64,000 nucleotides of DNA from Nereocystis luetkeana (lineage: Eukaryota; Sar; Phaeophyceae; Laminariales; Laminariaceae): NCBI GenBank assembly GCA_031213475.1, contig JARUPZ010000026.1, forward strand, positions 5,011,567 through 5,075,566, in the 5' to 3' direction. Under the pieces are notes generated by a model. It did no database searches and was not told the DNA's origin. It was given only the letters and a program-made list of their open reading frames with translations. The position numbers and the translations under genes were made by a program. Shown here in pieces: positions 3,580-63,645 of the stretch; the stretch's first letter is position 1; each line of letters begins with the position of its first letter.

Positions 3580-3880
3580 AAATTGGGTCTTTGGACCGCT
3601 CTCAACGCTTAAGACACTAAAGGCACCCCGCCAATGTACACCGTGTCCCGTCAAAAGCGTTGGTATTAGTGATGCATATCGGATATCGCGGGCGACTTGG
3701 CCTTGTGGACCGCTCTCATCGCTTATCGTACGACACTACGCCGTACCCATCGAAAACATTCGTACTACAATAGTGATATACATCGGATATCAAACTCGAT
3801 TTCTAGCGATGAATATCGGACATCAAGTGAATTGGCCCTGTGGACCGCTCTCATCGCCCATCATATACCTGGTACCAGGG
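3580..3880. repeat. Three direct repeats around TGGACCGCTCTCATCGC
   Basis: The phrase TGGACCGCTCTCA(A/T)CGC recurs near 3592, 3708 and 3840 (spacing about 115-135 bases). Between the second and third copies lie related blocks rich in ATCGGATATC words. Confidence 0.6.
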
Positions 3881-3899
3881 TATACGATACTATTAAACG

Positions 3900-5080
3900 T
3901 GTCCGTCAAAAACGTGTGTGCTGATAAGAGCGAAGTACAACGGAGATCGAACGAGAATCGAGATATTTACGATATCGAAAAATTCGACACGCTTGATTTT
4001 TGATACTCGATACGATTTGTAACAACAAAAAATATACTGCGTAGAGCAGTAGTAGGGCGACAGTAAATTGAAGGCAAAGCGCCTTCGATGCTATACTACA
4101 CCAAAACGTTCCACAAGTCGGACAGGTAAGATAGATCATCCACCGATAGATCATCTACATAGATCCTAACCTGCCCTTCTAAGGTGCTATGAAGGGACTG
4201 ATTAGCACAGGGCCAACCCAGGAAACATGTCAGATGAATAAATTATGCAGATTATACAGCTCCCACCCCAACACATGCGCTACTACAGTAGTAGATGGAT
4301 CTGGAATACATCTGCTCTGGAAGAGTTAGATCATTACGTGGAAACCGATGACCTGTCCTACAGGTGAAACGTTCGATGCGATATTCAACACTACACAAGT
4401 GCGTACACCCCACAAATAAAAACGTAGCCGCACCTACATAGCGGCCCCGTTTTCCGCCGCAGACCGCACTGACAGCCCACAGCTATGCCAACAATAGCGA
4501 GATCGAGCCACGTACGATATTCGCGTGCAGCTAGCATATCAGCCTGAGGCTTAAGTAGGCTGAATTGGGTTGAAGATAATCGAGAGGCAGCTCGAGGAGG
4601 GCCAGTCCTCTAGCACTGCTGTCGTCTCTCCTGGTCGTGATGGCCTGGCGAAATCTGTGAGCTTGAGCTCCAGGCTTACCGTAGATGTCGAAAGAAGAAG
4701 AAACATGTTGTGTGTAAGTACTATTCCATATCCACGCAAAATACCTCACTCCTGGGACAAGTTTTCGAGCAGATTTTCTCCACAACGGGACGGGTCCAAA
4801 CATCGAGCGACCCGGTTACCGAATTATTTCGTCCGGTAAAATTAGGTCAGCTACCCTTTTCCTCATGTGTGAGCCCCTTGTGTTGGGGGGAATCGAGTCA
4901 GAACCTCACCCCCAGGGGTGTGATATCTGGCGTGTCGTACTGTACGCCACCACTTCGGCCGTAAATATAGGGTACCCTAGTGCGCTGATATGAACAACAA
5001 ACACGCCTTGCATTGTCGGTCAGAGTGGTATGCTTTGTGATATGACGCACGGGTCTTAAAGCCTCCGCGCATCGGACAGA
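3900..5080. other. No gene seen; AT-rich spacer
   Basis: The part near 3950-4020 is rich in GATATCG words like family K. A half-copy of a family-D end lies near 4875-4935 (CAGAACCTCACCCCCAGGGG). No frame has support. Confidence 0.3.
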
Positions 5081-5340
5081 TCATCTGGATCCTTTCCACT
5101 TCATCATCTACACCTCCCAGGGGCAGCTAGATTCCTGATCTGGATGATCTATATGATGTGGACGATGATCTGTACAGCTCATGAGGCCGGGTGGGAGCCG
5201 CATAGTCTTGCGGGATCTACTTCAGTAGCATATGTTTCTCGGGTTGGATCTGCACTACGTATGCAAATCCTGCACAGCCTTTCACAACAGCAGGTGAGGA
5301 ACCAGATGATATATCTGTAGATAGATGATATGTATGAATT
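5080..5340. repeat. GATC-rich repeat (family E)
   Basis: Contains ATCATCTGGAT, GATGATCTATATGATG and GTAGATAGATGATATG words. In the middle it has a conserved non-simple part (CTGCACTACGTATGCAAATCC, then CTTTCACAACAGCAGGTGAGG) that matches the cores at 17110-17175, 40560-40620 and 46880-46960. It is therefore a dispersed repeat with GATC-rich ends rather than pure microsatellite. Confidence 0.6.
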
Positions 5341-5935
5341 ATCCGATGTGTGGAACTCTTGAAGCGGACAAATGGCAACCCTCTCGGGGCTGACATACCG
5401 CGACCAAAATGACGAGAAGCGTCGTCTCACCAACATTCTACAGCAGTAGGGTAAGCCATGTGCAGCACGAAGGCAGTTCAATCATGCTGCGAGCGGTTTG
5501 CATGTTCCCTCGAGGTGCAGTTCCCGTATGATACACGGCTCTGCGCCCAGTATCTTCCCGGGTGGGAGCTGTGAGACACAGCTCCCACGCAACATATCAT
5601 GATGGCAAACAAAGCAGTATCCGCAAAGAGGTGAAACAATAAACGTTGTAGGTGGTGATCTGCCTGATGGGGGCGACGACCTCCGTTGCTTCTGTCTCTA
5701 CTACTGCTTGTGAAGATGCAGTGGAGCAGTGGCCCTACTCGTACCTCTATTAATACTACTCTGTTCATAAATGCTACCACTACTGCTGTACGCAGTGCTA
5801 TGACTACTATTAATACTGCTGTACGCAGGCTCCGTCATATATACAAGTACACAAAGGTCGTCAGAGTACCAGTGCTAAGTCATTGGTACTCCAGGTCATT
5901 TTGCGTTTTGAATGACTCGGCTCCTACATGACAAA
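5340..5935. other. No gene seen; trinucleotide-rich spacer
   Basis: Holds repeated CTACTATTAATACTGCTGTACGCAG-like words near 5750-5830. No gene. Confidence 0.3.
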
Positions 5936-5939
5936 AAGC

Positions 5940-6480
5940 AGAAATGGCTAGGAGTACTCGAGAGTACCTGGAGCACCTAAAGCTGAAATGACTGAGTACT
6001 TGCGAGTACCTCGAGTACCAGGGGCTGAAATGAGAAATGACCGAGTACACGCGAGTACCTGGGATACCAAAAGCTGCACTGACTGAGTACACGCGAGTAC
6101 CTGGAGCACCTAAAGCTGAAATGACTGAGTATTTGCAAGTACCTCGAGTACCAGGGGCTGAAATGAGAAATGACCGAGTACACGCGAGTACCTGGGATAC
6201 CAAAAGCTGCACTGACTGAGTACACGCGAGTACCTGGAGCACCTAAAGCTGAAATGACTGAGTATTTGAAAGTACCTCGAGTACCAGGGGCTGAAATGAG
6301 AAATGACCGAGTACACGCGAGTACCTGGGATACCAAAAGCTGCAGTGACTGAGTACACGCGAGTACCTGGAGCACCTAAAGCTGAAATGGCTGAGTATTT
6401 GAAAGTACCTCGAGTACCAGGAGCTGAAATGACTGAGTACTCGCGATTCGCGAGTACCTCGAGTACCGACAGCTGAAATC
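5940..6480. repeat. Minisatellite, 133-bp period
   Basis: A unit built from four related parts (GAGTACACGCGAGTACCTGG, AGCACCTAAAGCTGAAATGA, GAGTATTTGCAAGTACCTCG and AGTACCAGGGGCTGAAATGA) repeats with its start near 6037, 6170 and 6303. Each 133-bp unit carries internal copies of a roughly 33-bp GAGTAC...AGTACC sub-unit. Frames on both strands through this array are by-products of a period that is not a multiple of three. Confidence 0.9.
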
Positions 6481-7213
6481 ACTTGGTATTCGGTGATACT
6501 GGACATCTGACGACCTTCGCAATTACCAGGTACACTGCGATTTTAATATTAATACTGCTGTACCGGCATGGCAGGTCCTACCACTACTGCTGAATCAGTA
6601 GGCCCTACTGCGGAACATCTCGAAAAGCTACTGCTGCTGTTGTAACGCAAAAAAAAATCGGCGCGAAGAGCGAACGAGTAGTGCGTCCTGTGCACCACTC
6701 TGCTGGGTTGATCACGCGATATCAGAGCGGATAATTCCCACAGCAGTACGTACCGCGTACCGTTGTTATTAATAGTACCACAGCAGCAGTAGAATCGAAC
6801 AACTGAAGTTACATGAAGAACTGATGCCGCAAAAAAATGTTGGCCCATTGATGCCAGGTACTGCTGTCTGCGTCTGCGGGTGCGACTCGTATACTCCCCA
6901 GTAGACTATTAATAGCACTGCTGTTTTCAGCTACGAAGAAGTGCTGGCTCACCTCACGCGACGCAGTACTCTCAGTACAAAAAACCACCGAAGCCCCTGC
7001 TTATTGCCGCTGCTGCTGCGCCGTGCGATGCAAGCCGCGCGATTCCCTTCGCGGGCGTGGAGTAAGCAGCCTGGGAAGAAGGAGTAGGCTGGAGAGGTGG
7101 AAGCCGACGACAAACTTTGGTGTCGAGGGCGGGGTCGAGGCGCGAAAGGTTTTTGGGGGGTCGGAGGGAACAAGGACAAGCGAACGAGTCAAAACGAGTG
7201 TTATCAAGATCCG
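6481..7213. other. No gene seen
   Basis: AT-rich at first, with TATTAATA words at 6545, 6766 and 6905, then a GC-richer part after 6950. No supported coding region. Confidence 0.3.
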
Positions 7214-7296: not shown

Positions 7297-8563
7297 TCGG
7301 ACTGCTACACATATCCTACATGTCCCATAATATAAGCAATAATGTTCCACTGACTGTCTATATTGGGACAAAGCGGTACCAGTTACAGTACGTGGAAATA
7401 CATACCTCTGGTACACGTACGGGCTGGTATCAAATACTCATTTCTTCATGTACAGCAGTAGGATACCAGGTACCAGTACGAGTGTCAGCTATGGGCGGTC
7501 CTGGGAGCATGTGCTTCTTCTGCGTTAGAATAGCACACACTGCCGCGCGTAGGCTTGACTTGGTGCACGTCATGATGGTACTACCGCTGCTGTCGGTTTG
7601 TGCTTCGCACATGTCGTCCATGTGTTATCACCATGTTTTTCCCCCTGTGCAACGAGATGCAGACAAGTCAGTTGAATTATCCGTTCACCACCAAACAATC
7701 CAACGACAGAGGTCTGGTTATTTCAGTTGTTTCGAGTCCTCGGCGCGCGGGGGCCTACCACGAGAACGCAGCACCACACGACGGCACAGGCATCGGACCG
7801 ACCGCTACAAGGAGGTTCGGCAGGGCAAAGCGCGTGCTTCTTTTCAGCTGCCCGTGCTTGGCCACCGCGACCACTGCCCCCAACGACGGACGGTTTGCCT
7901 TCTCGTCAAGTCTGCCTGCTGGGGTACAACCTCCAACCTCCCTCTGGCCTCTGTTCGAATTTTCGCGATGCTTCACGAGTGCTCATTCTGTGGGGCCGCG
8001 GCCAGAAGATCGACGGGAAAGAAAAATGCGTCAGCCGCGCAAGGCGGGCAAGAGTGGGCCCTTTGTCGTCGAACGCGGGAAGGGACAAGACGCTAGCGTT
8101 CGACAACACGGGAGGGTCTATACTATCCAGCAATAGGTCTATGCCTCGCAAAACACAAGGTTTTACGTTCTCCGATTTTGCGTGAGAGTTTGAAAAAGGG
8201 GATGCAATTGGTTTGAAAATACACACTCAAATTGCTACAGCAAAGGGGGGCAAGCCGGCGCGCACTGCCCGACATACAGCTGGCGTGACAAGGGCAGTCT
8301 GCATTCACTCACCGGCCTCTCGCTTGGGACAGCTGGGTTGGTGTTTGTCCTTTCCCCTTTCTGCTCGAAAACATCAACGGGCGCCCCAGGGAAGATGGGA
8401 GTTCAATGAGGCGGTATATGACGAACGCTCATTGGCTGAATTTCCTCGAATTATTTTTCTTCCCGTGGATCGTGCCCTGCCTGTGTCTGGTCTGCTGGTT
8501 CTGTTGTTGGATGCCGTGTGTTCTTCTCAAAGCACGCACACCAGCAAGCACATACGTAGCACG
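7297..8563. other. Spacer, then GC-rich region upstream of the 8564 exon
   Basis: From about 7740 the sequence turns GC-rich and free of the recognised repeats, up to the ATG at 8564. That would suit a promoter and 5' leader. Several overlapping frames exist in all phases here, but none shows a family signature. Confidence 0.3.
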
Positions 8564-9420: not shown

Positions 9421-10139
9421 AAGCCCTTGCTACTCTGTATCCTACACACTTTCTTACATGCTTCGCAGTTCACGCATATTTGTACGGGGCTAGTTGTCGA
9501 TCCCACAGACAGAGTTCTACGTAGCTGCTGTTGTTGGCATGAATTGGCAACCGCCGCGTGCATGAAAAAGCAAGAAAGAGTCCTCCAATGCGTCGTTCTC
9601 CTCTCAGCCAAACCGATCCTTGCGATGATGGCACTTTGCTGTTGATGCTGGCACACGCACGCACGAACGTGCGTAGGGGACGTATCATACTGGTGCGCCA
9701 CGATAATGTTCATCATACTCGTAGCTGCAGCTTCTTGTTGTACGTCAGCTTTGATTTTTTTCCTGAGGGTTAGATGCCATCAGTATCATTTCTTGTTGTC
9801 CATGAATGATACCTGGTACGACGTATAAACCGGTAATAGCTGGCTGGTAGACCAGAGTATCGGGCATGTACGGACCAAAGGTGTATCCGTATCTAACGTA
9901 CGGCAAGATACCACCCTTCTCTCACATACCACCCAACCGCAGGAAACCACTCCCGGGGATGAAAAAAAAAATCTAAAATAAATAAATGGGCAAGTTTGTC
10001 ACCGCGGGGTACGTTGGATACCACTCCCCTCCGTGGGTTCATTTACGCCTTCCAAGCAAAATGAACAAATATCACCCCCGGGGGGGGCAATGAAAGTACT
10101 GCACAGCAGTAGTACCCATCTATTTCGGCAGCACACACA
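9421..10139. other. No gene seen
   Basis: Mixed spacer. A TACCTGGTA word is at 9809. Around 10068-10090 an ATCACCCCC...GGGGGG motif resembles family-D ends. Confidence 0.3.
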
Positions 10140-10720: not shown

Positions 10721-11578
10721 GTGTTGGATACAACCCGATCATAGGAGACCACCCCAATTGATAAAAAAACAGAACGCCTTTTATCTATCCCCCGGGTTGG
10801 TTTCTTGCGTCAGATATGGTACCCGTATTAGGATGCAGTTCGTACAGAAAGGCCTGTACTGCCGTGGACTGCTGTTGCACCAGGCATTTCCTCACACACC
10901 TCGCATCTGCTTGCATATACTGGCACCTCGTACCTTGTACCTGGTTAAGTCTATGTAGGTGCCTATGCATCCATCCCACGGACAGACGTTCTGCCGTGTC
11001 AGCAATTGTCGCAAGTGTCGTCATCTGCCCTGCGATGGATGGCGCTTTGCGGTTGGTGCCGGCACACGAACGACCGAAGGAACGAACAATATGTTTAGCA
11101 CGTCTTGTGTGTCTGCGGCTTCTTGTTTCAGTCGCCTCTGAAGCTTCTGAAGCCTTTCCCGCGAGTTTGTCGCTGAAATTTCTGCCCAAGTAAGAAGGCC
11201 GCTGTTCCAGCAGCTTGTCCGTGTTTTCCCGAGAAACCACGCCGTTGTTATGGACCTCACGTATATTACATGGCAATGCTGCCTAGACATGTACCTACTG
11301 TAGACTACTTCCACGACAGACTACTGTCAATAGCTGCTGCTCTGTGCCGTTTGCTGCTGTAATGATGCACTGTCACTGCCGCTGTTGCGGCTACCGTACT
11401 TTCGGCAAGACTACTACCAACAGGTACAGCAGTAGTTGTGTGCATGTATCATATGTGTGTGGGTGCGTACCTGGTAGATATGTGTACGAACGTAGAGGCA
11501 GGCAGTAAACAGCTGCTGCAATTAAAGGTATACCAAGGTATATGATAGCATCGACAACGATTGGTTGATCCTCCCATC
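10721..11578. other. No gene seen
   Basis: Spacer with several CTGCTGT and TACC-type words. Short frames on both strands overlap one another and none is supported. Confidence 0.3.
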
Positions 11579-13160: not shown

Positions 13161-13162
13161 AA

Positions 13163-13240: not shown

Positions 13241-14916
13241 TTGTGCGAGAAAACTTCCCGTACACAGCTGAGCTGGAAAACTGGACGTTGGTGATTGAAA
13301 CGAGCAATTAAGCAAAGCAACAAACCTCGTGTGTAAATATATGCAAGACGGACGAAAGGGGACTATGATTAATAAATGATGAGGGCGGCATCGGCCACGA
13401 GCATACAGTATGCGACTAAATAGCAACCCGGGCGCTACCGGGTTGGGGGGGGGGGGGGTGATTCAAAGTTGCAATGCAGTCTCGCTAGTACGGGCACTAT
13501 AACTGACTGCAAGGAGCTGTATAACACGCTTGCAGCATGAAAGGGGACACCTTGGATACATCCCCGGGTTTCTCAGGTGCATGTGGAGTATGCACCGTTC
13601 AAAACTAGCGTGTAGAACAGAACTGACGTTTCTTCTGCTGTGGACTTGCGCAGCTAGCACCGTAACTGATGTTAATAGTCTAGACCGCTCGAACCGCGGA
13701 TCGCTACGAACCCCTTGGCCCTAGACCCTATTAATAGACGGTTTGACGAGATCTCGCTTCTCACTCAAGCTGTGAGTCGTTGCGCCTTGTATACATATAC
13801 CCCGCCGCCGCACCAAGAGGGCGTTCTTGTTTTTCGTTTCGCGTGTTTATCCAACATTTTCCAGGTACGTACATCAACCCCGCTAAACTTGCAGTTTCGG
13901 TTTAGTTCCTGCGATATAATTCCTCACAGGAACCCACTATATGTCCCGAAATATAAGAAACATTTGAAATCAATGTTAATGTACAAACGATCCTTATGTA
14001 ATTGTGGAAGAGTGGTACTGTTTTTGTGATGCCATGCAGACAGCACGCAGTCGCGTAAAGAAGAAATAACCAAGATAAAGCAGGCGCCCCGAGTTGAAGT
14101 GCAACAAATAACTGCAGTGTTGTTATTTTGACGACCAGTATTGCTGTTGCGGTAGTTAGGTACTGGCGTAGGAGTGTGTATGCTTAATGTCCACGAGCAA
14201 CCGCTCGTGACGTCGGCCTTGTTTTTCAGCAATCTATATACCAGGTACGAGATATATAACGCGGACGCGAGTGCGGACGAAATCACATACCAGGTATGCA
14301 AGAACTGTTGATGTTGTTGTTGTTGTGGCTGTTGTTGCTGCCTACATGCAGTCGTCGGTGCCGTGGGCGCAAGGCATCCTCCGATCATTCTGGAGAGTGG
14401 AAAAATAACAGGGGTGTTTTCGGTCGGGTTTACCCGTGCCCGGGGTATTTTTGGTGGACGTAACGAGCTTACCGAAAGTGTCGGGAACCGATATTGAGGT
14501 CGTACCGAACTTACCGCAGCGTACAGTACCGATATTGATGGGCGCACCGAACCGAAAGAAGTGTCGGGCACCGGTATCGAGCCCCAACCGAAGAAATACC
14601 CGTGCTGCCGGAATATTTTGGTGCGTACCGTGACCGAATACTTCATACTGGTACAGGCTTAAAAGAAACAAGTAGAACTGACGCAACTACTGTAAGGGAA
14701 AAAACGAAATAGAGAAAGAGTACAGTACGCAAGCTCGTGTCTAAAAGAGCAAGAAAACAAACATACGTGACGTTGAGGAACGCGATACGTCCAACGCTGT
14801 GGTTTTTAGGGCCGGACCGTAGATCGCTGTTGTTGTCAAAGAGACTGTGTGTAGGAGGCGGCAGCCTGGCCCCTTGGGTGAGCTCTCCCCTTCGCTTGAC
14901 CTACCTATTAATAATT
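13241..14916. other. No gene seen
   Basis: Contains a G run at 13443-13459, a TTG/CTG tract near 14305-14340, and ACCGATATTGA(G/T) and CACCGGTATCGA words repeated around 14485-14580. The 240-codon minus frame 13924-14646 spans these repeats and has no family signature. Confidence 0.3.
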
Positions 14917-18135: not shown

Positions 18136-18486
18136 ACTGCTGTAGCATGGGTCTCCTCAGAGAGGGACCCTCGGAAGGGGCTACTACCGGCACTGCTCTT
18201 TTTTTCGGATATTATCATATGAACTTTAGTGTACAAACGACCCAAAATATTTAGGGACAAAGTGGTCACAGGTACCAGGTAACTTATAAGTACGTACCAT
18301 GGAATTTTTCCTGGTAGAATACTGTCGGGGTTGCAAGTGATACGGTGTGGTATTCCACGGCCCGTTATTGCCGTTCCCTCGCGTACTCTGGTACTGACTG
18401 ACTGCTGTTGTGCACGTATTTGTTTTGTCGTTTTGTACTGGTTGTACGTTCTTGTTTTCTTGCAAAAGTCAAGGACGCCTTTTTAT
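18136..18486. other. No gene seen
   Basis: Short spacer with a TACCAGGTA word at 18270. Confidence 0.3.
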
Positions 18487-23670: not shown

Positions 23671-23929
23671 GTAGTCACGGCTATACCATAAATAGACGGA
23701 GAAGAAGAAAGGAAGGGCGAAGGTACTGCTGTTAATAAATCGGAACGTTTTTTTTTTGTACGTACGGGGCCTGCGGGCTACACGACCCTCCATTTTTTAT
23801 GACAGCAGTATTATCATCGTATTAATATTTAATAGTAAGAAAATAACTACTGCTGTACCTGGTACCTGGTATACAACAGCAGTAGGTAGGAGTACGTATA
23901 TCATACCTGGTATTATAGGTGCGTGCGTG
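23671..23929. other. No gene seen; cluster of TACCTGGTA words
   Basis: Three TACCTGGTA words at 23866-23910, two of them overlapping on a shared TA. Confidence 0.4.
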
Positions 23930-24460
23930 TGATCTTCTTTCTGTTCTACCCGTCGACATCCAGCACAACCAGTGTCCATGCCGATTCTTCAATCCTACTT
24001 GGTACCGGTACATAGTTACAAGTTCTGTGGTCACAAATTTACGCCTCTTCTATTTTTCTTTTTTTCAAGTTTTTTTTTTTCTTCTCTTTTGATTTGTCTT
24101 GTTTTTTGCTTTTTTCCCTTCGTTTCTTTATTTCATGGAATGTGAATGTCGTGCCTGTCGGATCCAGTATGATGGCATGGGCATTGCATTGCCCACTGCT
24201 GTTGCTGTGCTTACTGCATACCAGGTACGTGGCAACGTGATATCTCTCTAGCGCAGCTTTGTGACCACAGAACCTTGTGTATCTCTTCTAGGATTGAAGA
24301 ATCGGCACGGACACTGGTTGTGCTGGATGTCGACGGGGGGAAAGAACGGTCTAGTGTGAAGAACACACGCAGAGATATACCATAATACAACCTTGTTATG
24401 CAGTGAACAGAGTAGACAACGCAATGTCGTCACACTGGATACGACAGGCGCGACATTTTT
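23930..24460 (-). repeat. R1 fragments, two overlapping pieces
   Basis: 23935-24030 carries CTACCCGTCGACATCCAGCA and GCCGATTCTTCAATCCTA. 24050-24460 carries a T-rich arm, GAATGTCGTGCCTGTCGGAT, the centre with TTTGTGACCACAGAACCTTG and GATTGAAGAATCGGCACGG, and the inner end TGGATACGACAGG. The copy carries a 7-bp CCAGGTA insertion at 24219 relative to 29296. Confidence 0.7.
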
Positions 24461-24732
24461 TATTTTTTATTTTTGCTTATCCCATTTATTATCTTCGCAC
24501 ATCTTCTTCTCTCTCTCCTTCCAACTCGTAACTCAGATCCGGGGTCACATATTAATAGCAGGCTCTTCTACCCCCTTCCCGCTACGGTGCGTCCCTTCAG
24601 ATTTATCGTGAGAAGATTTCAGCTTCTTCTTCCCTCGTCGACTCGCATCGAATTGTGCCTACCCACGCTGCAAGGCGCTCTCAACAATTGAATCCTTTTC
24701 TTTTTTTTTTTCCGCAAATAAATTCAAAGTCC

Positions 24733-25004: not shown

Positions 25005-25192
25005 TTCTTTTTCAAGTGTTGGCCACCTCGCCTGCGGGGGGGGGGCACGACAGATTGTTTCTCCTAGTTTTTTTTTTTTTTTCTTCTTTATCTTTTCTGA
25101 TTTGTATACTTTGTTTTTGTTTTCTTTTTGATTGTTTCTTTTTGTTTCCCTATTTCATAGATTGTGTATATTGTGCCTGTCGTATCCAGGAC
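25005..25192 (+). repeat. Single R1 arm
   Basis: TGTTGGCCACCTCGCCTGCG, a 10-G run, CACGACAG, a T-rich tract, then TTGTGCCTGTCGTATCCAGG, where it meets the LINE endonuclease sequence. Confidence 0.7.
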
Positions 25193-25915
25193 TTGACGGG
25201 TTAGGATGTAGTCAATCCGCTTACGGTCATTCGGGCCGGTGCCGTTGTGACTATGCGATATCCCACCCTTGCGCGTGCTGAAAAACGTGTTGGTGAGAGC
25301 TAACTTGCAATTGGTGGCGAACGACAGGAGCCGTCTGCCATTGTCGTTACGAACATCACGTCCATACGCTCCCAGCACTCTGCTTTCATCATCACCGCAC
25401 CCTTCCTTCCCCTGTCCAGTTCGCGCGTTGGCATCCATCAGTACAAACAGACACTCTTTCGTCGGGATTTTTTCCACCAAGTACTCCAGCTTCTGCCAGA
25501 AAATACGTTTCAGTTCGGCGTCCTTGGTACAATCAGTTGGAGCATACGCAACGACGAAATTGACTGCCTCGCATTTGCCAGCCAGCTCAAAGCGCATAGA
25601 CATTAGCCGCTCGTCAACGAACTGATGAGTATACACAGACTTACTGCACAACGATTCCTTGACAGCTAGGCCTACTCCGTACAGCCCTTGCCTGGTGGCT
25701 GTTGTTTCCTGTCCTGAACAGAAAACACGATACCCTGCCGCACGGAACGTCGTGCTGCCGGACCTCCGATTTTCTTGCAGGCCAATGAAGTCACAGCCGA
25801 GTTGCCGTCCCTTCGCCAGTACACGCTCGTCATGTCCGTACCCGTTCTTCCCCTTTACAGCCAGGGTGCGCACGTTGTAGGTCGCTACCGTCACAAGTGC
25901 CTCCTTCTGTCTCTT
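25192..25915 (-). mobile_element. LINE AP-endonuclease domain, truncated, inverted relative to its RT
   Basis: The minus frame encodes most of an exonuclease-endonuclease-phosphatase domain as found at the N-terminus of non-LTR retrotransposons, which nicks target DNA for target-primed reverse transcription. Motifs in order: VTVATYNVRTL (metal-binding Asn), DFIGLQENRRSG (catalytic Glu), NFVVAYAPTD (Tyr region), CLFVLMDANARTGQGKEG (Asp/Asn), and KRIDYILTRQ. The last motif, SDH, is missing, because the frame runs into an R1 arm after ILTRQ. A basic linker ([20 protein letters not shown]) precedes the domain up to about 25990. Only about 230 residues of the domain remain, so it cannot act alone. 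The next LINE part, the RT, lies head to head on the other strand. Confidence 0.85.
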
Positions 25916-26002
25916 ACGAGCCTCGCGTGCTGCTTTCTTTGCCAGCCGACGTGAGGCTCGTCCCCGCCTTCTTTTTTTCTTTTTTGTTTCTTTTTTTTCT
26001 CT

Positions 26003-30184: not shown

Positions 30185-30532
30185 GATTGACTGTTAATAT
30201 AGACTATAGAGTATTTATATAAATAGTTTGTTTATTTGACCATTCTGTCCGGAAATGTAAGGGTCGTTCGACCGCTTGGGTCAAAGATATCAAGAGACGA
30301 CGGTCAGTCACGAGGGAAAACGTGCATCGGTCAAGGGTGTCAATCCGAGTGTTACACACTAAAATATACCAGTACCTGGTACCTGGTAGTAGTTTGGCGT
30401 GCGTCAAGGTAAATATACGGGAAAATGCCGTCCGTCAAGGGGTTGAAGTGCCGTCTTCTGACATACCTGGTACCAGGTATTTGGTTTGGGTAGTGAGTAA
30501 CATTAAAAAAAAAAATGCTCCTTACTTAAACT
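30185..30532. other. No gene seen; four TACCWGGTA words
   Basis: Half of a family-G end (CATTCTGTCCGGAAATGTAA) at 30240. Two TACCTGGTA words share a TA near 30370, and a TACCTGGTA-CCAGGTA pair is at 30464. Confidence 0.4.
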
Positions 30533-30628: not shown

Positions 30629-31179
30629 ACGACAGAGTGGGAAAATGATTGTGCCGATCGTAGGTTGGGTGTGATCTTCACTTCTTCGCGCTGAACCGTT
30701 CTTCTCTGCGTCGATATCTTGCTATCTGCTATCAATAGTTGCAGCTGTTGTGAGCGTGAGCGGCTGTTGGTAATTGCAGTTGCTGTTGCACGGCGGGCTG
30801 TTGGTAGTTGGCTCCACCGCAGACAACGACCATCACAAGTAAGTGTGTTATATTATTTTTTATTAGTAGAGTACAGTATTGTGGGATTGCAGATTGCAGA
30901 CTGCAGACTTCAGGTTTCAGTTGTTTAGAGAGCCGTTGGAGTGGAAGCGTGCGATTGGTTGAAGTTTCGCCGCGATTTTCTTCGGCGCACGAACAGCGGT
31001 GTAAGTAAACGGCTGACGCATGCTGTGATGATGATGTTCTCACATTTCTGCCTTGTGGTTTCAGTAATATCCCTGAAGAAGTCTGTTTCAGCTCGTGACT
31101 CCTATATGTAGACACCTGCTCCCAGGTACTACAATAGGTATGCGTGTATCGCAGAGTATACCAGGTACAGTATCAATAG
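30629..31179. other. No gene seen
   Basis: GATTGCAGATTGCAGACTGCAG short repeat near 30885-30910. Nothing else stands out. Confidence 0.3.
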
Positions 31180-33786: not shown

Positions 33787-33922
33787 TATTACGGGGTACC
33801 ATAGTAGTAAATAGGACCAAACATTGTTACGAGTAGTAAAATTATAGATAGGACCAAATGTTGTTGGTAAAAATTATGGAATTATGTAGGTCCTACCAGG
33901 TATTTACTATGGTCCCCCGAAA
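33787..33922 (-). mobile_element. MITE, family A, with internal duplication
   Basis: The block AAATAGGACCAAACATTGTT recurs as AGATAGGACCAAATGTTGTT about 42 bp later. The right part holds TCCTA-CCAGGTA-TTTACT, where other copies read TCCTATTTACT. Confidence 0.8.
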
Positions 33923-33992: not shown

Positions 33993-34101
33993 TAAACCCT
34001 TTTTATAATTGCAGTACCGATTTGAACAGCCAACCCCTCACGTTATACCTGGTAAGTAGTTTGTATCCCCAGAACGGGACTGCAGTCCTAAAAGGATACT
34101 A
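33993..34101. mobile_element. MITE, family B, degraded
   Basis: Left arm TTATAATTGCAGTACCGATT is weak; right arm CAGAACGGGACTGCAGTCCT is good. A TACCTGGTA word sits in the centre at 34045. Confidence 0.55.
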
Positions 34102-35104: not shown

Positions 35105-36218
35105 CTCGAGGGCTTTGGTTTATTCATGGCCGTGGCCTTGGTTTAGTATCACACCTAAACTCTTAACCCACAAATCGCACCATACTAAAGGCACTATCGT
35201 TTTGCTGCTGTAGCGCAGAAACTGCTGTACAGAAACCTGAATCTGAGTGTATTTCCAAGTGTCTTATGCCCACATCGGAACTGCAATCCTATACGAATAA
35301 AGGGGTTGAAAAGCCGCGCACGGGTAATTAATTATTGGAGCCACCTCCCCCCCCCCCCGCGCCTCCGGAACATAAAAAAACGCTCGCTGAATAAAAGATT
35401 AGAAGTTCCACTCGTAATTTGTAGGGTTGCCATCCCTCAAGTTGGTGTGTTCGCTACAATGCTACATTATACGTGTATACCAGTATACAATAGTAATATG
35501 CAATAATAGTAATATACGATATTAATAGTAGTATACGATAGTATTAATAGTATACAATAGTAGTATACAATAGTATTAATATTAATAGTATACGATAGTA
35601 GAGTATCGTAGATAAAGCATAAAAAAAGTAGACATAAAAGGTAGATAGACTTAGACTTGGTGTGTAGGTTTCCTTCGTATACGGAGATGTCTTCTTTCAG
35701 GAATGTTTTGATTGATCAACGTGAAAGCTCATGCTGCACATTGTCGGACGGCAAGCCTAATAATTATAATAGTACGATATTATTAATAGTATTAGTAGTA
35801 TACCAGGTGTTTTATACATTATGTACCCTTTGTGCACCAGGCACCTGCGGAATGTTAACGCATCATATTTTAATCCACTACTCCAATAAAGGTAACACCA
35901 AATGAACTGCTCGGTAATATACACACAGCAAGTGTGGGGGACGGCGTGGGATAAAGATGCCAAGTAGTATACCGGGTATAAAACACCCGGTATAAAGTAC
36001 CTGGTACACCATTTTACATGCCGTGTCTAGTGGCACCTGGTAGCTGCCTGGTCGGTGAAAGCCCGACATGCTTCGTCCTAACGGGGCTGATAGCAGGGTA
36101 TCTATCTGCAGACGTGCTCGCCTTTTGCTTTCGGTTCTCTTTTATGCTACATGTTATATGAGCTTGAAAAAATACGAGTTTCGACAAACTTCTCGATATG
36201 ACAGCAGTATCATATATT
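35105..36218. other. No gene seen; ATAGTA/TATTAATA-rich spacer
   Basis: 35470-35610 and 35765-35805 are built from ATAGTATACGA and TATTAATAGTA words. A family-B half (CATCGGAACTGCAATCCTA) is near 35274. A family-C scrap (CTGGTCGGTGAAAGCCCGAC) is at 36048-36070. Confidence 0.45.
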
Positions 36219-36336: not shown

Positions 36337-36452
36337 TATTACGGGGGACCATAGTTAATAGGACCTATGGTGCACACAAAAGCCTACCAGGTATATATAT
36401 ACCTATTTTTTCCAACAATATTTGGTCCTATGTACTATGGTCCCCCGTAATA
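36337..36452 (+). mobile_element. MITE, family A, carrying CCAGGTA
   Basis: Full arms. The interior reads AGCCTA-CCAGGTA-TATATATACC where others read ACCTATATATTTACC, so 7 bp are added after TA. Confidence 0.9.
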
Positions 36453-36803: not shown

Positions 36804-36919
36804 TATTACGGGGGACCTTATTAAATACCTGGTAGGACCTACGGTACACACAAAAACCTATATATTTCGCTATTTTTTCTAACAATATTTTATTGTATTT
36901 ACTGTAGTCCCTCGTAATA
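36804..36919 (+). mobile_element. MITE, family A, carrying CCTGGTA
   Basis: TTAAATA-CCTGGTA-GGACCTACGG, against TAAATAGGACC or TTAATAGGACC elsewhere. The 7 bp are added after TA at a different site from the 36337 copy. The right arm is decayed (TAGTCCCTCGTAATA). Confidence 0.85.
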
Positions 36920-37856: not shown

Positions 37857-38492
37857 CACACTGGGTGACAAGATAACACACCCCCCTCGGACGACTTTCA
37901 AACCTGGGTTTCTCGACAACGGTGAGGGCGTACTGAGTACGACCAGCGATGCGTCCATGCTACCTTCTCGACGAAACGTTCCCAAAGCCACCATTTTTGT
38001 TGTCCCCCATGATTTGGAGGTAAAGAACCCTTACTCCGCACAAGGGAATATATCGTATCACATACCTGGTACCAGGTAGTGTTCATGGTAAGGCGCCCAA
38101 GAGGCAGTTACATTCTGTAGTACTCCCATTGCTGTCTCTGGAAGTGGCTACACCGGAAATTAAATGAACTCATCGAAGCTGTCTTCCATATGCAAGTCCG
38201 CCTCGAAAGGGGTGCTTAGTAGGATGCAAGCTCACCCTTCATGCGACTCACCGGACACCTCACGGCGCTTCGCGATTGGTGCAAGCAATATCTGCCTCTG
38301 GTCGGTGAAAACCCGATATGCTCCGTCCCGGCAATGTAGGGATGCGATTGTCTATGGGCATACGACTACGGCCATGCATGAGATCAAGTGCATCTCTCCT
38401 ATCGAGTACCACACACCCCCCCATGTTTTGCAGGAAACCGGGTCTGAAATTCGTCCCAGGGGGCGTGTTATCTTATCACCCAGCGTGGTGTT
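37857..38492 (+). mobile_element. TIR element, family D, enclosing a family-C sequence
   Basis: The left end ACTGGGTGACAAGATAACAC, then CCCCTCGGACGACTTTCAAA, is matched in inverse by the right end TTCGTCCCAGGGGGCGTGTT, then ATCTTATCACCCAGCGT. This gives about 48 bp of imperfect TIR 636 bp apart. Inside, 38020-38419 is a long family-C copy, colinear with 11955-12316. No protein frame of note. Confidence 0.6.
38020..38419 (+). mobile_element. Family C element, long copy, with double TACCWGGTA
   Basis: Colinear with 11955-12316. At 38062 it reads ACATACCTGGTACCAGGTAG where the other has GCGTAG, that is, two 7-bp units in a row on shared TAs. Ends ATCGAGTACCACACACCCCC. Confidence 0.8.
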
Positions 38493-44526: not shown

Positions 44527-47439
44527 AGCGCGGGGGGGGGTGGAATTTCCTCAGGCAGGTAAGCAAGCGATGAAGCACAAGCAGGGGGTTGGGTCCGGGG
44601 GTTAAGTACTCGGGTGTTGATTGCCCTAGTCGTTAGACCTTTGGCCACGCATCTTTTCGGAGAGAGCAAGGTTCAGTGTCCTTAAGCAGGCAATGAAACT
44701 GATTACAGGGGTGTTTGTAGATGGAGGAGGGGGGTTGGGGCGAGGATGGGAGGCTAGTCAGATAGCATGAGCTATAGGCTACGCTAAGGCAAGGCTCGCT
44801 AGACTAAGCTACGCTAAGGTGGGTTAAGTAAGGCCAAGCATGGGACAGTTTTTCCTGTACAAGGTAAGCTGAGAAGGTGTAAGGTATGGGGATGTTAGGC
44901 AAGCAGAGCAGAGCTGAACTGAAGTAACGCTGGGCAAGCTAAGGTCAGATAAGGCAAGGTAAGTCGATGAAGTACCTTGGTACCTCGGTATGAGGCAAGG
45001 TCGGGCGAGGTCAGAGTGAAAAGCAGGCAAGATGAGAGAGGCAAAAGTATGCTGAGGGTAAGGCTAGGTAAGCTAAGGTTGAGGTGTCGTGAGCTCGGGT
45101 TATTTAATGCTCGGTGATGTTAGGCAAGCAAAGTGAATCGGAGTTGTAACGCTGGGTGAGCCCCTATTTCTTGTTAGGTTCCTCGCTTGACCTTAAGGAC
45201 CTCTATTACTAACCTAAAAACCGATTTCGAGAAAAGTCAAGAGTGCTACCCGATGAACTGTAGGTATGTTTCGAATATTTTTGTAAAGCGGTGATGAGTT
45301 AACCCCTTTCAGGGCCGCAGTCCCGTTTTGGGGACAAACTACTTGAAATTTGAGTGGTTTGTCCCCAGAAACGGGACAGCGGTTCTAAACGGGTTGAGGA
45401 ATCCGGAAGGTCAGTTTTTTTTTACGGGGTAATGAGTGCTACCCTATCGCAGCGCGCGTGTAAGGCGAGGTAAACAAGAAGGAAGGAAACGTAAAGGAAC
45501 TGTGGGGTAAGATCAGATAGGGAATAGTGAGACAAGGCGAGACAACGCAAGCAGAGCTACTGTAGGCTGAGGTAAGGCCAAGTGCGTTATGTTAAGCCAG
45601 AGGTGGCATATAAAGTACCAGGTAGGGTGGTATCAGGCAAAAAAAAAGCTAGAGCCGAGGCTAGGCTGAATGTGACGGAAGGCAGGGTAAGGAAAGGAAG
45701 TCACACACCGGGCACGAAAGGATTGGTATCCGGGTTACCATGGTTGAATGAAATAAGTTGTACGGCACGGGGGGGGGGGGCAAAGTGACCCTACCCGCGG
45801 GGCTGCAGGGTGCTCACGCTGCTCTCGAACGGTTGATAGAAAAACGAACCACGGGCAGACAGATCACGACAGATCACGACCTACAGATAGATCATCTTCA
45901 GGTCCTAAGCCGCCTTCCTTGTCCTACGTTGTGCGGGATTTTTTTTGTTCGGTGCAGACCCAAACCCCAGGGAGCATATCCTGAGATCACGCATGTAGAT
46001 CACACAGATCATGAGCTGCTGCAAACCCTAGAGATCAGGGATGATCTAGTATCTGCCCTGAAATATGCGCAGCAGATCATCCGGTGGGAATGACCTGAAG
46101 ATTATCTCGGTCACTAATGTGTGGATGGTTGTGCTACCGAGGGGCCTCAAAAGGGTCAGCCTCGCCACGACTCCATAGTCAGCGAGCTGTGCCGCGTCTC
46201 GATTTTTGTGACTCCGCAGTTATGGAACACAACCGGTGCTTATTCTGTCGTTGCCTTATGCCTGCATCCTATACACGAAAAAAAAAACATGGACGAGTTG
46301 TCCAATGTTTTTTTTGCCACATCCTATTTTGTGTCCTGGTTTTAACATGTTCGTTCCCCGGCAATGGTACCGTATACCAGTCGCGCAGTGATCGATGTCG
46401 GCAAATTTTCTCTCCCAAGTAACGAAGGGATGTTAGGTGAAAAAAAAAGCTTTTGCTCGTCCACCGGAGCGCGGAAGCGTGATAGAAACAAGGCAAGAGC
46501 CTTGCCGAACACCCGATAGATTGGCGCGCGCCAAAAACGAACGCTGCGCACCGTCATACTGTTGAGTGTGTCCGCAGCCACCGTGTGAACAACGCGACAC
46601 ACACACCCCCACCTACCCTCGGGAAAATTTCCGTAGGGTAGGTCAATCTTACTTCTTTTTTTCCTCCCCCAATTCAGTTTTGTTTTGTTTTTTTTCTCCT
46701 TTTTTTTCAGACTTTGTTTTTGTTTCTCGTTTTCTTTCTTCGCCGTTCTTTTGGTTCATTCATTCTTGTATTTTTTTTCTTGTCTTGCCCGTTTCTTTGT
46801 ACTTGAATTCCAGTTCTGACAGTGTTTTACACGTCGGGTAGGTCATGATCTATCTGATCTGTCTACAGATAGATCACCTAGTTCCTCACCTGCCGCTGTG
46901 AGAGAAGTTGGGCAGGATCTGCGTAGTACACATCCCCAACGCAGGAAGCAAGTGCTAGTGTAGCTGATGCAGATTTTACGTGTCCCATCCGGCGACATGA
47001 GCTAGGTCATACGTCATCGAGAATGACGATATATCTGCCTTGGAAGATCTAGATCATGAGCTGTGGGAATCGATGATATGTAGATGATCGGTGGGTGATT
47101 TGTATATGGTCAGTGGACGATCTGTAGATGATTATCTTTATCTGTATATTATCTGTAGATGATATGAAGATTATCTGTATATTATCTGTAGATGGTCTGT
47201 AGGGTATCTGTAGATGAACTGTCCGAGTTAGATATTTCCCTTTCCCGGCTTTTTTTTCGTTTTTTCTCGTATTTGGTCCCATTTTTATTTCGTTTGTTTC
47301 GATTCGTACCTGCGTAACTCTGTAACTTTTTATCTTTCTTGTTGTGTGACGCTTTTATATTTATGTTTATATATACGTAATCCCCCCACGTCCGCCCCCC
47401 GCTCCCGTCACGCCTCCTCTGCATGCGCTCCCATGACAG
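44454..47439 (+). other. Kinase intron (2986 bp) with donor-like tandem repeats
   Basis: Begins with G runs (the longest, about 35 G, at 44491-44525) and two further copies of the exon-end phrase (44549 and 44680). 44760-45160 and 45460-45640 are rich in AGGTAAGC, TAAGGCAAGG and AAGGTAAGC words. MITE B lies at 45299-45398, and GATC-rich family E at 45855-46085 and 46840-47225. 46650-46800 is T-rich. The acceptor at 47438-47439 is CCATGACAG|GTGAAG, with a moderate pyrimidine tract. Confidence 0.65.
45299..45398. mobile_element. MITE, family B, in the kinase intron
   Basis: GGGCCGCAGTCCCGTTTTGG / CAGAAACGGGACAGCGGTTC. Confidence 0.85.
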
Positions 47440-48670: not shown

Positions 48671-49436
48671 GTGTGTGCTCGATTCGTTGCGGGCTGGCGG
48701 AGCAAACATATATCCGGGAGGGGTGGGGAGGGAGGAAGAAGAGCGGGCCGTGTACGCAAGAGTATTTCTTGCGCTTTAGAAGATGCCTCGAAACCATCGC
48801 TGCAAGCTGCGCGCGTTAGTTCGATCGCGCATGGGGAGGACGCAGAGTATAAGTATGTGGCGAAATGGCGCATCTTGTTGAATATCTCCATTGCGTAAAT
48901 ACCAGGTACTTCGGAGTACGACGATCAGGCCTAGGCTTTTATAGAGTAGGGGTGCTGTTAAAAGTGTAGCAGAAACAATGGCTGCTTATGAATGCGGTAA
49001 TTGCCCTTATTTTTTATTGTCGCGCAATCCCGTGCCAGCCGCCACGACCGCCCCCACCCTCTCCTGCTGAAAATACCGCTGTGTACACGCCTCCGGGGAA
49101 GGGGTTTCCAAGGATACATGGCGAGGCATGTCTCGTCCGCGAGCACGAACGTGACGTTTCAGTCCGGTTTTTTGGAAAGGTGGATACCTACCACCCCTCT
49201 GTCTGAAATTATTATAACCGCTTGGTTAAAAAAATAGTGTATAACCGGTGCTTATATTATGGGATAGAGTGGTATGGTACTAGTCAAGCACTACGTAGTT
49301 GCTGCTGCTGCTGCTGTAGGTATTGCAGTCCTTCGGTGTACAGCGCGTAGAATTTTGGTGTGTGTCACAGCAGCAGTAGGCACACCGCATGGGGAGGTCT
49401 GCGTACGTGTCGTGGGCCTCCAGGGGACGGCACGCT

Positions 49437-51207: not shown

Positions 51208-51281
51208 AAGGCGGCGAAAAAACAACTCAAGAGGAATAAATCCCAGAGTAGTCCTGTGATGACAAAAGGTATACCTGGTAC

Positions 51282-52961: not shown

Positions 52962-53070
52962 TATTACGGGGGGCCATAGTTAATGGGACCAAATATTGTT
53001 AGTAAAATGGTTAAATATATACCAGGTAGGTTTTTATGCATACCATAGGTCCTATTAACTATGGTCCCCG
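52962..53070 (-). mobile_element. MITE, family A, carrying CCAGGTA, in the kinase intron
   Basis: ATATATA-CCAGGTA-GGTTTTTATG where 49973 reads ATATATAGGTTTTTATG. Read in family orientation this is CCTA-CCTGGTA, the same site as 36337, 38533 and 60329 but with the other central base. The right end is cut short at CCCCG. Confidence 0.9.
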
Positions 53071-59381: not shown

Positions 59382-59384
59382 GAA

Positions 59385-60203: not shown

Positions 60204-60328
60204 ACTAACAAAGACCTAGGCTATGAGATCTTCGAGCCGGACTTAGTCCAGCTACGGTCTACCCTACCCGTTAGAGCGTTGAAGTATTGGCCCGAATGCC
60301 TCCCAAGGGGAAAACCTTGTATCTACTG

Positions 60329-60445
60329 TATTACGGGGGACCATAGTTAATAGGACCTACGATACGCGCAAAAAACCTACCAGGTATATATTTTCATTTT
60401 TTTACTATCAAGATTTGGTTCTATTTACTATGGTCCCCCGTAATA
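60329..60445 (+). mobile_element. MITE, family A, carrying CCAGGTA
   Basis: AACCTA-CCAGGTA-TATATTTTCAT where 55244 reads AACCTATATATTTTCAT: exactly 7 bp added after TA. Confidence 0.9.
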
Positions 60446-61384: not shown

Positions 61385-61847
61385 GCACACATCGGACAGA
61401 TGGATCATCCACAGATCGTCTACAGATCATTCCCACCAAAAATGATTATCTAGATGTATCCATGATCGGTATGATTTACTGTTGCTCAGATTGCCGGGTG
61501 GGAACCGTACAATTAAATCTGCATGATGCAGGGCATGTTTTCGGCGTATGATCTGGCGCGAAACAGATCCCGGACATAATCTTCTAACGGGCTGGATACA
61601 TACTACTGTACTGTCGTGTACAGATCCTATACAAGATCTGTAAGCGGCAGGTTAGGATTTATCTGATCTATTTATCTAGATGATCTATCTGTAGTTGATC
61701 TATATGATCTATATGTAGATGATGTAGATGATGTATCTGTAGATGATCTAGATTAACTATCTGTAGATGATGTAGATGATCTAGATGATCTATCTGTAGA
61801 TGATCTAGATGATCTATCTGTAGATGATCTAGATGATCTAGATGATC
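61385..61847. repeat. GATC-rich repeat ending in an array (family E)
   Basis: 61660-61847 is an array of GTAGATGATCTAGATGATCT-type units of 18-27 bp, which runs straight into the N gap. Confidence 0.85.
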
Positions 61848-61947
61848 NNNNNNNNNNNNNNNNNNNNNNNNNNNNNNNNNNNNNNNNNNNNNNNNNNNNN
61901 NNNNNNNNNNNNNNNNNNNNNNNNNNNNNNNNNNNNNNNNNNNNNNN
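61848..61947. other. Assembly gap, 100 N
   Basis: Exactly 100 N, a conventional scaffold gap size. The real length is unknown. Frames drawn across it are meaningless. Confidence 0.98.
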
Positions 61948-62223
61948 GCACGATTCGACGCGAATCGACGCGGGGGAGGGCTGGCATCCCCCCCCCCCAC
62001 CCCCCCCCCTCCCCTGCGCCCACTCTGCCTCCATAATTTAGGCGTACCTGGGTGGCCGTTTCCACCGCTTCCTTCTCGTTTTTCTTGATGTCGTCTTTTT
62101 CGGTGAGGTGCCTTGAAACTGTGACCCCATGGCTTATAGCTTGCTCCTGGGGCGATACACAAAAGAGAAGTTCCGCGGCAGCACAAAGGGAGTGGGGTTT
62201 CGCAACAAAGACGGAAAGCAAGC
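61948..62223. other. No gene seen
   Basis: C runs at 61989-62008. Short unclassified sequence. Confidence 0.3.
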
Positions 62224-62480
62224 GGGGGGGGGGGGGGGGGGGGGGGCTGTACTCGATATCAGGCATGGCCGTAGTTATATAACCATAGACCCTCGCATCT
62301 CTACAATGCCGGGACGGAGCACGTGGGGGCTTCCACCGACCATGTAGTCATTTGCTTGCACCAAGCATTCGCGAAGCGCCGTGAGGTATTGGGCCAGTCG
62401 TACGAAGGGTGAGCTGCATCCTAAAAAGAACCGCTTGTCAGGCGGACTTGCACATGGATGACAGCTTCAACGAGTTAATA
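62224..62480 (-). mobile_element. Family C element with 22-G run
   Basis: G tract 62225-62246, then CTGTACTCGATATCAGGCAT, GACGGAGCACGTGGGGGCTT, GAAGGGTGAGCTGCATCCTA and CGGACTTGCACATGGATGAC. Confidence 0.85.
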
Positions 62481-62612
62481 TATATACATCTATATATATA
62501 AATGTATTATTTATTTTTTTGGGGGGGGGGGCGTATGGGAGACAATAGAGAAAGAGTGTGATAGAGGTAGAACAGGGATAAAATATGTGAGGAACAAAAT
62601 AGAAACAGAGGG
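62481..62612. other. No gene seen
   Basis: TA-rich, with a G run at 62521-62531. Confidence 0.3.
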
Positions 62613-62745
62613 CGGGAGGGGGTGGGGGGTGTACTCGGTAGGAGAGATGTACTCGATCTCATGCATGGCCGTAGTCGTATGTCCATAGACCCGCGCATCC
62701 CTACAATGCCGGGACGGAGCATGTCGGGTTTTCACCGACCAGGAG
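62613..62745 (-). mobile_element. Family C element, 5'-truncated copy
   Basis: GGGGGTGGGGGGTGTACTCG, GATGTACTCGATCTCATGCA, then stops after the CACCGACCAGG phrase. Confidence 0.8.
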
Positions 62746-63169
62746 GCGGGGGAGGGGCGTGTACTCATTTCTTGCTTGCCTTAGTCATTTGACCATTCAC
62801 CACGCATCCCTTTCGAGATGGAGCACCGTTCCTACTCCTAATAGAGGTACCTCCAACAGCTGGGCGCTCATCACGTCGTTTCCGTATATGTTACATGGAA
62901 AAATTTGGCTACTCTTACCCCTTCTTGCTTGGCCGCCTGTGGCCACCATCTATCTTCTAGGATAGCGGTCGTTTTCTCGCTGCTATATCTAGTGTATGAA
63001 ACTCCTCCATGTCACATCCGTCTATTTCCCTCATCTCCTCTTGTAACATACCCCGTTCCTCCTTGTACATTTCACCTTCTCCCACTATGTGAGTTCTACT
63101 CTCTATCGCTTTGCCACACGGGCGCATCTCAGCATCTACATCCCCCGGGGTACGCATTGCCCTGCATGG
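62746..63169. other. No gene seen; distant family-C relative at the left
   Basis: GTACTCATTTCTTGCTTGCC, AGTCATTTGACCATTCACCA and GAGATGGAGCACCG repeat at 63837-63903, a second, distinct subfamily that keeps the same layout. The rest is unclassified. Confidence 0.4.
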
Positions 63170-63645
63170 CGGTAGCCGTAACGGCGACGATGAGCCCCTG
63201 CATCCCACCACCGCTAGGACGGCGCACGAGGGAACTTCCTCGACCGGGCACACATCGCTACCAGGGAAATCGTTTTATTCACTCCCGCCGGAAAGAAAAA
63301 AACTTTGAGGCCCGCCACGCGCTCCAGAGTGCACACGGATGGCGCCGAGACCTATACCAATGTGCCCGGCCGGGCTTCCCGTGTCCGATACTTGGTGTTT
63401 CGCCGAAAAGTGCTCGTACGAGCGTTTTTCCCCTCTCTCCTTTTTTTTATTGACGTGGCGTTTTTTTTGTACGTACCACGAGCATGCTGTCGTCGAGCAA
63501 AGCGCGAAGCCTTCTTCTATGTGTTGGCCGAGTCGCAAAGGAAGGGTTGCGCTGCATCCTACCAGGTATCAACTATGCGAACCGCTTGCGAGGCGGACCT
63601 TCTTGCATAGGCATGGCAGCGTCGAATTGATTGATTTTGCTTTTT
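63170..63645 (-). mobile_element. Diverged family C element, interrupted
   Basis: CATGGCGGTAGCCGTAACGG and GGACGGCGCACGAGGGAACT at the left. AAGCGCGAAGCCTTCTTC, TTGCGCTGCATCCTACC and ACCGCTTGCGAGGCGGACCT at the right. About 200 unrelated bases lie between. Confidence 0.5.

What the first reader, a model, noticed from the sequence alone, without database searches (positions are those of the whole stretch)
3866..63568. A 9-mer, TACC(A/T)GGTA, scattered about 30 times, behaves like a transposon excision footprint
I count about 30 TACCAGGTA or TACCTGGTA words; chance would give about half of one in 64 kb. In repeats with other copies to compare, the word replaces a plain TA, adding exactly 7 bp. 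Cases: MITE A at 36388, 53017 and 60381 (one interior TA site; 38583 has the same insertion with TG for TA), at 36826 and at 33893 (two other sites), R1 at 24219 (compare 29296), and family C at 38062, where two units are stacked. At the shared MITE site the central base is A in three copies and T in one. TA-CC(A/T)GG-TA is what TA-targeting (Tc1/mariner-type) excision would leave if 5-nt overhangs CCAGG annealed with a central A:A mismatch repaired either way, a longer analogue of the known Sleeping Beauty TAC(A/T)GTA scar. The 5-nt form is my inference; I know of no described case.
Basis: partly seen in the sequence, partly recalled or inferred. Interest (0 to 1): 0.82.

Follow-up and report, generated by a model that had tools for sequence, protein, structure and literature searches.

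The report
Genome-wide scars of a vanished transposon
A nine-letter DNA word, TACC(A/T)GGTA, sits at about 180,000 places in this 465-million-base genome and has the marks of the scar left when a jumping gene lands at TA and leaves again, although the jumping gene itself was not found.

Summary
The window has 30 TACCWGGTA (0.54 expected). The whole genome (465 Mb) has 182,395, against 1,744 for the reversed word, and 15,917 stacked doubles against 2. In repeats with comparable copies the word replaces a plain TA, adding 7 bp. In MITE A this happens at three TA positions, with A or T at the centre, so descent alone is excluded. New evidence for transposition: scarred TAs share a palindromic target preference (A/T at -7, A at -6, T avoided at -1), and a scar supplies half of that target itself, which partly explains stacking. 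A likely positive control lies in the same genome: TATTAATA, a second dispersed word, has the target preference (TAC|TA) of MITE A and fits MITE A's own footprint. Minor forms TACCAGGGTA and TACCAGGGGTA point to element ends CCAGGGG. The parent was not found: no filled site among those inspected, and no transposase linked to it, so the overhang length remains inference. Best reading: excision footprint of a rare or lost TA-targeting cut-and-paste element, unusual in uniformity and number, and longer than most described.

The parts
3866..3882 (+). TACCTGGTA followed by TACCAGGGTA (+1G form), stacked
6524..6532 (+). scar TACCAGGTA
7464..7472 (+). scar TACCAGGTA
9810..9818 (+). scar TACCTGGTA
11468..11476 (+). 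scar TACCTGGTA
14239..14247 (+). scar TACCAGGTA
14288..14296 (+). scar TACCAGGTA
18273..18281 (+). scar TACCAGGTA
23856..23871 (+). double scar
23904..23912 (+). scar TACCTGGTA
24219..24227 (+). scar in repeat R1; other copies have plain TA
30373..30388 (+). double scar
30464..30479 (+). double scar
31159..31167 (+). scar TACCAGGTA
33894..33902 (+). scar inside MITE A copy
34046..34054 (+). scar TACCTGGTA in a repeat
35998..36006 (+). scar TACCTGGTA
36385..36393 (+). scar inside MITE A, site AACC|TA|TATA, centre A
36826..36834 (+). scar inside MITE A, site TTAA|TA|GGAC
38063..38078 (+). double scar in repeat family C; other copies have a single TA
45616..45624 (+). scar TACCAGGTA
48900..48908 (+). 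scar TACCAGGTA
51272..51280 (+). scar TACCTGGTA
53020..53028 (+). scar inside MITE A, site AACC|TA|TATA; centre T in MITE orientation
60378..60386 (+). scar inside MITE A, site AACC|TA|TATA, centre A
63560..63568 (+). scar TACCAGGTA
24550..24557 (+). TATTAATA, second footprint word (MITE A type); two repeat copies elsewhere read GTCACATAGCAGG with plain TA
35574..35587 (+). stacked TATTAATATTAATA (6-bp period)

Best explanation
TACC(A/T)GGTA is the excision footprint of a TA-targeting, Tc1/mariner-like cut-and-paste DNA element. The element inserts at TA, preferring the pattern (A/T)A-N4-(not T)-TA on either side, and duplicates the TA. On leaving, it keeps back the first bases of its ends as single-stranded 3' overhangs. 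Overhangs beginning CCAGG anneal to each other with one A:A mismatch, and repair gives TA-CC(A/T)GG-TA. Shifted annealing on a longer G run gives CCAGGG and CCAGGGG. The new TAs, with TA 7 bp away, are good targets again, so scars stack. Shown: TA-specific 7-bp insertion, number, target preference, stacking, the variant ladder, and a matching element/footprint pair (MITE A/TATTAATA, by flank preference) in the same genome. Inferred: the element itself, its ends, and the overhang length.
For: Genome-wide 182,395 vs 1,744 control; doubles 15,917 vs 2. The scar replaces a plain TA in 17 of 91 runs (my reading; most others had no second copy). 11 scar runs in 10 of 57 MITE A copies, at three TA positions, with both centre bases. 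Target preference seen in window and 200-kb sample apart: A/T at -7 0.83 and 0.79 vs 0.52 and 0.51; A at -6 0.54 and 0.51 vs 0.26; 0 of 2000 random draws reach either. The inner flank of a scar scores about 3-fold above the average TA. TATTAATA flanks (-3T .53, -2A .52, -1C .49, n=102) match MITE A ends (.59.64.52, n=56). +G forms at the MITE site: of 100 listed hits of 296, 81 AGGGT and 8 AGGGG against 4 TGGGT, by my count; 8 of 8 AGGGG and 9 of 9 inspected AGGGT are TA-closed scars. Inner near-miss variants total 30 against about 18 expected, for 91 intact words.
Against: No parent element found: none recognised in 264 kb; no MITE A copy with an inserted element among the 19 non-AGGGT and 9 of the 81 AGGGT hits inspected (196 of 296 hits were never listed); 0 hits for AAAACCTACCAGGGGV; none among 18 of 119 AAAACCTACCWGGTB; one class of filled site did not complete. 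PF13358 and PF01359 gave no match. Six of 28 DDE_1 loci looked at downstream had no such end. Stacking is about 10-fold, more than the 3-fold that target preference predicts. Variants at the TA ends are commoner than chance (58 vs about 18), not fully explained. The A bias of +G forms is partly a bias of that site (71:29 among decayed scars). For TATTAATA only 1 of 55 sites has a clean plain-TA counterpart outside simple repeats.
Confidence: 0.8

Rival explanations
1. Micro-insertion without a transposon: a nuclease cuts at preferred TA sites and repair inserts a fixed 5-nt CCWGG plus a TA duplication; no long element was ever there.
For: No parent seen; the inner bases are uniform.
Against: Needs an unknown templating step; the A-biased +G ladder fits element ends CCAGGGG; MITE A and TATTAATA suggest ordinary insertion/excision in the same genome.
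Confidence: 0.1
2. Programmed or somatic elimination: elements sit at these sites in the germ line and are cut out of the sequenced tissue, leaving the same scar.
For: No filled site seen among those inspected, against very many scars; stacks and target preference would look the same.
Against: MITE A copies remain in large numbers in the same DNA (57 in 264 kb); mutated scars exist, so at least those are probably inherited.
Confidence: 0.06
3. The word is a selected or spreading short motif (protein-binding site, recombination word) or was inherited inside repeat subfamilies.
For: Short, palindromic, very abundant.
Against: It sits as +7 bp at plain TA, at three positions of one MITE with both centres, with a flanking target preference and in stacks.
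Confidence: 0.03

Closest known systems
Sleeping Beauty / Frog Prince (Tc1-like) excision footprint, TA-C(A/T)G-TA
   Same: TA duplication, odd-length palindrome with an ambiguous central base; a footprint of overhang bases between duplicated TAs (footprint C(A/T)GTA in a table of PMC3878927, passages seen).
   Different: 5 nt between the TAs instead of 3; +1G and +2G forms; about 180,000 copies; parent not found.
Stowaway / Osmar5 footprints in grasses
   Same: [quoted passage not shown] Total length alone is therefore not unprecedented.
   Different: Those are putative, asymmetric and of several types at one site; here one palindromic product dominates genome-wide.
MITE A and TATTAATA of the same genome
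   Same: TA target, residue between two TAs, stacking.
   Different: Target TAC|TA|GTA, 4 nt left (TTAA), element still present in high copy.
pogo/Fot1-type transposases (Pfam DDE_1; class name from recall)
   Same: A TA-targeting transposase class present here, 28 matches.
   Different: No link between any of them and CCAGG ends was found in six looked at.

Membership tests
Tc1/mariner-type excision footprint | Insertion at TA with TA duplicated | tested here: met
   Scar replaces plain TA in compared repeats
Tc1/mariner-type excision footprint | Bases between the TAs are the terminal bases of the element | tested here: inconclusive
   No element found; the +G ladder suggests ends CCAGGGG
Tc1/mariner-type excision footprint | Short residue: 2-4 bp in PMC7913693, 0-4 bp for Passer in PMC9976928 | tested here: inconclusive
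   5 nt dominant, 6 and 7 nt rarer, outside those ranges; but putative Stowaway footprints hold up to 4+2 bases (PMC1925063), so the range is not a firm definition
Tc1/mariner-type excision footprint | Palindromic preference around the TA target | tested here: met
Tc1/mariner superfamily element | DDE/D transposase of the superfamily in the genome | tested here: inconclusive
   DDE_1 28 matches; DDE_3 none, control genomes ringing in 3 of 14; Transposase_1 none, but nothing rang in its controls either; PF01498 did not complete; none tied to this footprint
Tc1/mariner superfamily element | Terminal inverted repeats | tested here: inconclusive
   sought in 264 kb, none recognised; element not found
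MITE A as TA-targeting element with footprint TATTAATA | Element flank preference equals footprint flank preference | tested here: met
MITE A as TA-targeting element with footprint TATTAATA | Footprint replaces plain TA in other repeat copies | tested here: inconclusive
   55 sites, 15 with a spanning hit, one clean case outside simple repeats (window 24550)

The most novel reading that the evidence does not exclude
A low-copy TA-targeting element moved more than a hundred thousand times in this lineage without accumulating. It was cut with unusually long 3' overhangs (5-7 nt), almost always repaired by direct annealing, and so left a near-complete written record of its jumps as identical, stackable 7-bp scars making up about 0.3% of the genome. 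The scars' own TAs serve as renewed targets, so the record feeds back on later insertion.
Probability: 0.4. Interest if true: 0.88.

Novelty: new variant of a known kind. Interest (0 to 1): 0.73.

Why it matters
In the papers seen, excision footprints are few and mixed. Here one footprint type is present in six figures and nearly uniform, so transposition history, target choice, repair outcome and age can be read directly from one genome. Two footprint types side by side give a rule linking element ends to scar sequence. It also asks why an element that jumped so often is now rare or gone, and whether repair in this host rarely restores the excised copy.

Tried and rejected
Searched 264 kb for long inverted repeats with TACCWGG or TACC ends. 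A 188-bp candidate at window 35803-35990 and a 1.87-kb one at L020:8296 to L021:165 were examined and dropped: the first lies among other repeats and nearby scars and has no second copy of its ends in the sample; the second has no second copy of its ends there and no frame over about 170 codons. A candidate at window 49885 (minus strand) had no second copy. A 3-nt overhang CCA was rejected because it offers no pairing and would give other products (TACCATGGTA: 0). Filled sites in MITE A were sought with three answered genome patterns; the hits inspected were scar variants, decayed scars and non-MITE words. Never answered: AAAACCTACCWGGVA, AAAACCTACCWGGTA, WANNNNVTACCAGGGGV, TATTAATA genome-wide, family PF01498. 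Clustering of scars beyond target preference is weak (gaps of 200 bp or less: 14 seen, null 8.9, sd 2.8). Not found in print; one search listed 20 of 226 papers and none of those 20 holds either 9-mer, so the other 206 are not excluded.
Full report
Observation. The window holds 30 TACCWGGTA in 26 runs against 0.54 expected. It lies in a genome of 465,085,209 bases in 1987 contigs (position C26:5011567-5075566), which holds 182,395 copies; the reversed word, used by the tool as control, has 1,744. Directly stacked doubles number 15,917 against 2. Seven added bases each give about 1.28 Mb, 0.27% of the genome (arithmetic).

Sample. I worked on the window plus 200 kb of the same contig (264,020 bases with about 5,100 N): 91 words in 81 runs, 72 single, 8 double, 1 triple. 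After TACCWGG comes TA in 182 of 281 strand-occurrences; the remainder looks like chance words, decayed scars and local repeats.

Insertion at TA. Each scar run was replaced by TA and the joined flanks were searched against the sample. Of 91 runs (10 of them from loci L001-L004, L007, L008), 17 by my reading have other repeat copies with a plain TA at the junction; most of the rest have no second copy in the sample. MITE A has 57 non-redundant copies, 11.5% from their consensus on average; 10 of them carry 11 scar runs. These lie at three TA positions (AACC|TA|TATA 7 runs, TTAA|TA|GGAC 3, GACC|TA|TGGT 1, after merging the two strands of the palindromic element), and at the first both centre bases occur in the element's orientation. 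Inheritance within subfamilies alone cannot give this.

Target preference. Flanks of scar runs (162 oriented flanks against 26,908 of all TAs) show A or T at -7 in 0.81 (background 0.51), A at -6 in 0.52 (0.26), T at -1 in 0.06 (0.19). Window and 200-kb sample agree when treated apart; 0 of 2000 random draws reach the -7 or -6 values, and 16 and 1 of 2000 reach the low T at -1. In a scar, the TA seven bases away puts T and A exactly at -7 and -6 of the next TA. That half-site scores about 3-fold above average, which helps explain stacking. The observed excess at scar TAs is about 10-fold (10 extra units on 162 scar-end TAs against 81 runs on 13,457 TAs), so part of stacking is unexplained.

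A probable positive control in the same genome. A search for TA-flanked words with varied flanks found a second one, TATTAATA (106 strand-hits, 8.9 expected), also stacked, with a 6-bp period. Its flank preference (T .53, A .52, C .49 at -3 to -1; n=102) matches that of MITE A ends (T .59, A .64, C .52; n=56). MITE A reads TA|TTACGGGGG...CCCCCGTAA|TA; of 19 full copies tested, 8 had a spanning empty-site hit and in 3 by my reading it has plain TA. A 3-nt overhang TTA on each side, paired by its last two bases TA and filled in, gives TATTAATA. Against: of 55 TATTAATA sites 15 had a spanning hit, several of them simple repeats, and only one (window 24550) is a clean plain-TA counterpart. So the link rests mainly on the flank match, and the overhang step is inference.

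How the scar forms. If the overhang is the first n bases t1..tn and k bases overlap, the product is t1..tn followed by the reverse complement of t1..t(n-k). CC(A/T)GG follows from n=5, k=5 (four pairs, one A:A mismatch) or n=4, k=3 (CCAG). n=3 fails: no pairing, and a likely product, TACCATGGTA, is absent. A genome pattern at the main MITE A site for TACCWGG not followed by TA gave 296 hits (control 29). Of the 100 listed I count 81 AGGGT, 8 AGGGG, 4 TGGGT, 7 other. Inspected: 9 of the 81 AGGGT, all TACCAGGGTA, 7 of them in MITE A (L031-L037); all 8 AGGGG, all TACCAGGGGTA in MITE A; all 4 TGGGT, three TACCTGGGTA (two in MITE A) and one no scar; all 7 others: one MITE A copy with CCAGGA between the TAs, and six words outside MITE A. 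The A bias (81:4) is partly a bias of the site: among 100 listed decayed scars there I count 71 A and 29 T. It is still stronger than that, which does not fit later slippage of a finished scar and does fit element ends CCAGGGG with shifted annealing. That would need overhangs of up to about 7 nt. A T-type +2G scar also exists (in L080).

Age. Single changes at the four inner C/G positions total 30 over 12 variants, against about 18 expected from permuted words, for 91 intact scars: roughly 3% per base (rough). Changes at the four TA positions total 58 against about 18, roughly 11%; why the ends vary more is open. By the inner bases, scars are younger than the MITE A copies they interrupt.

The parent. 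It was not found. No TIR element with such ends recognised in 264 kb; 0 genome hits for AAAACCTACCAGGGGV; AAAACCTACCWGGTB has 119 hits (control 3), of which 18 were inspected: decayed scars, imperfect stacks or words outside MITE A, and no MITE A copy with a long insert. The class AAAACCTACCWGGVA did not complete. With copies in the tens, absence at one site means little. Transposases: PF13358 none (controls ring in 3 of 14); PF01359 none, with no control ringing either; PF03184 DDE_1 28 matches, best 3.4e-28. I looked at 0.8 kb downstream of six of the 28: three continue into similar C-terminal protein sequence, none shows an element end in CCWGGTA; two windows contain scars.

Known kinds. 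PMC3878927 (passages): Tc1/mariner excision leaves 2 or 3 bp 3' overhangs; Sleeping Beauty footprint C(A/T)GTA. PMC7913693 (passages): footprints of 2-4 bp. PMC9976928 (passages): pogo-class Passer 0-4 bp. PMC1925063 (passages): putative Stowaway footprints with up to 4 bases on one side and 2 on the other, several types at one site; Osmar5 1-4 bp fragments. PMC4423477 (passages): rice excisions give complex patterns. PMC2874221 (passages) adds nothing on length beyond 3. Minos, from recall only, leaves 4 nt. Against these, the present footprint is longer than the stated ranges though not than the longest putative Stowaway ones; what stands out is its palindromic uniformity and its number. It works like a Tc1/mariner footprint; membership is not established because the element is missing.

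Verdict. After checking I lowered interest slightly (0.74 to 0.73) because of the Stowaway precedent for length.

Noticed in passing
window 5748, 5808, 6547, 24550, 35574 and others (25 occurrences in window): TATTAATA, a second dispersed footprint-like word whose flank preference equals that of MITE A; stacks with a 6-bp period.
   Followed up: yes
window 23848, 49742 and elsewhere; 24 distinct sites in 264 kb: TACTGCTGTA (TA-CTGCTG-TA), 24 with varied flanks against about 1 expected, C favoured just outside; possibly a third footprint or a codon-repeat effect.
   Followed up: partly
L026:3209-3224: TACCAGGCGCCTGGTA, a perfect palindrome that might be an untrimmed footprint keeping both ends; single case.
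   Followed up: no
window 25088-27310: Overlapping frames with an endonuclease/exonuclease/phosphatase match on - and a reverse transcriptase match on + (LINE-like remnants).
   Followed up: no
G000 C1, C2, C31 DDE_1 loci (L075, L077, L078): Three of the DDE_1 loci continue into related C-terminal sequence at scattered places; they might be host genes rather than mobile ones.
   Followed up: partly
genome-wide stacked doubles: Among 59 + strand doubles listed, by my count 40 have equal centres, 14 A-then-T and 5 T-then-A; the last is under-represented if centres were independent.
   Followed up: no
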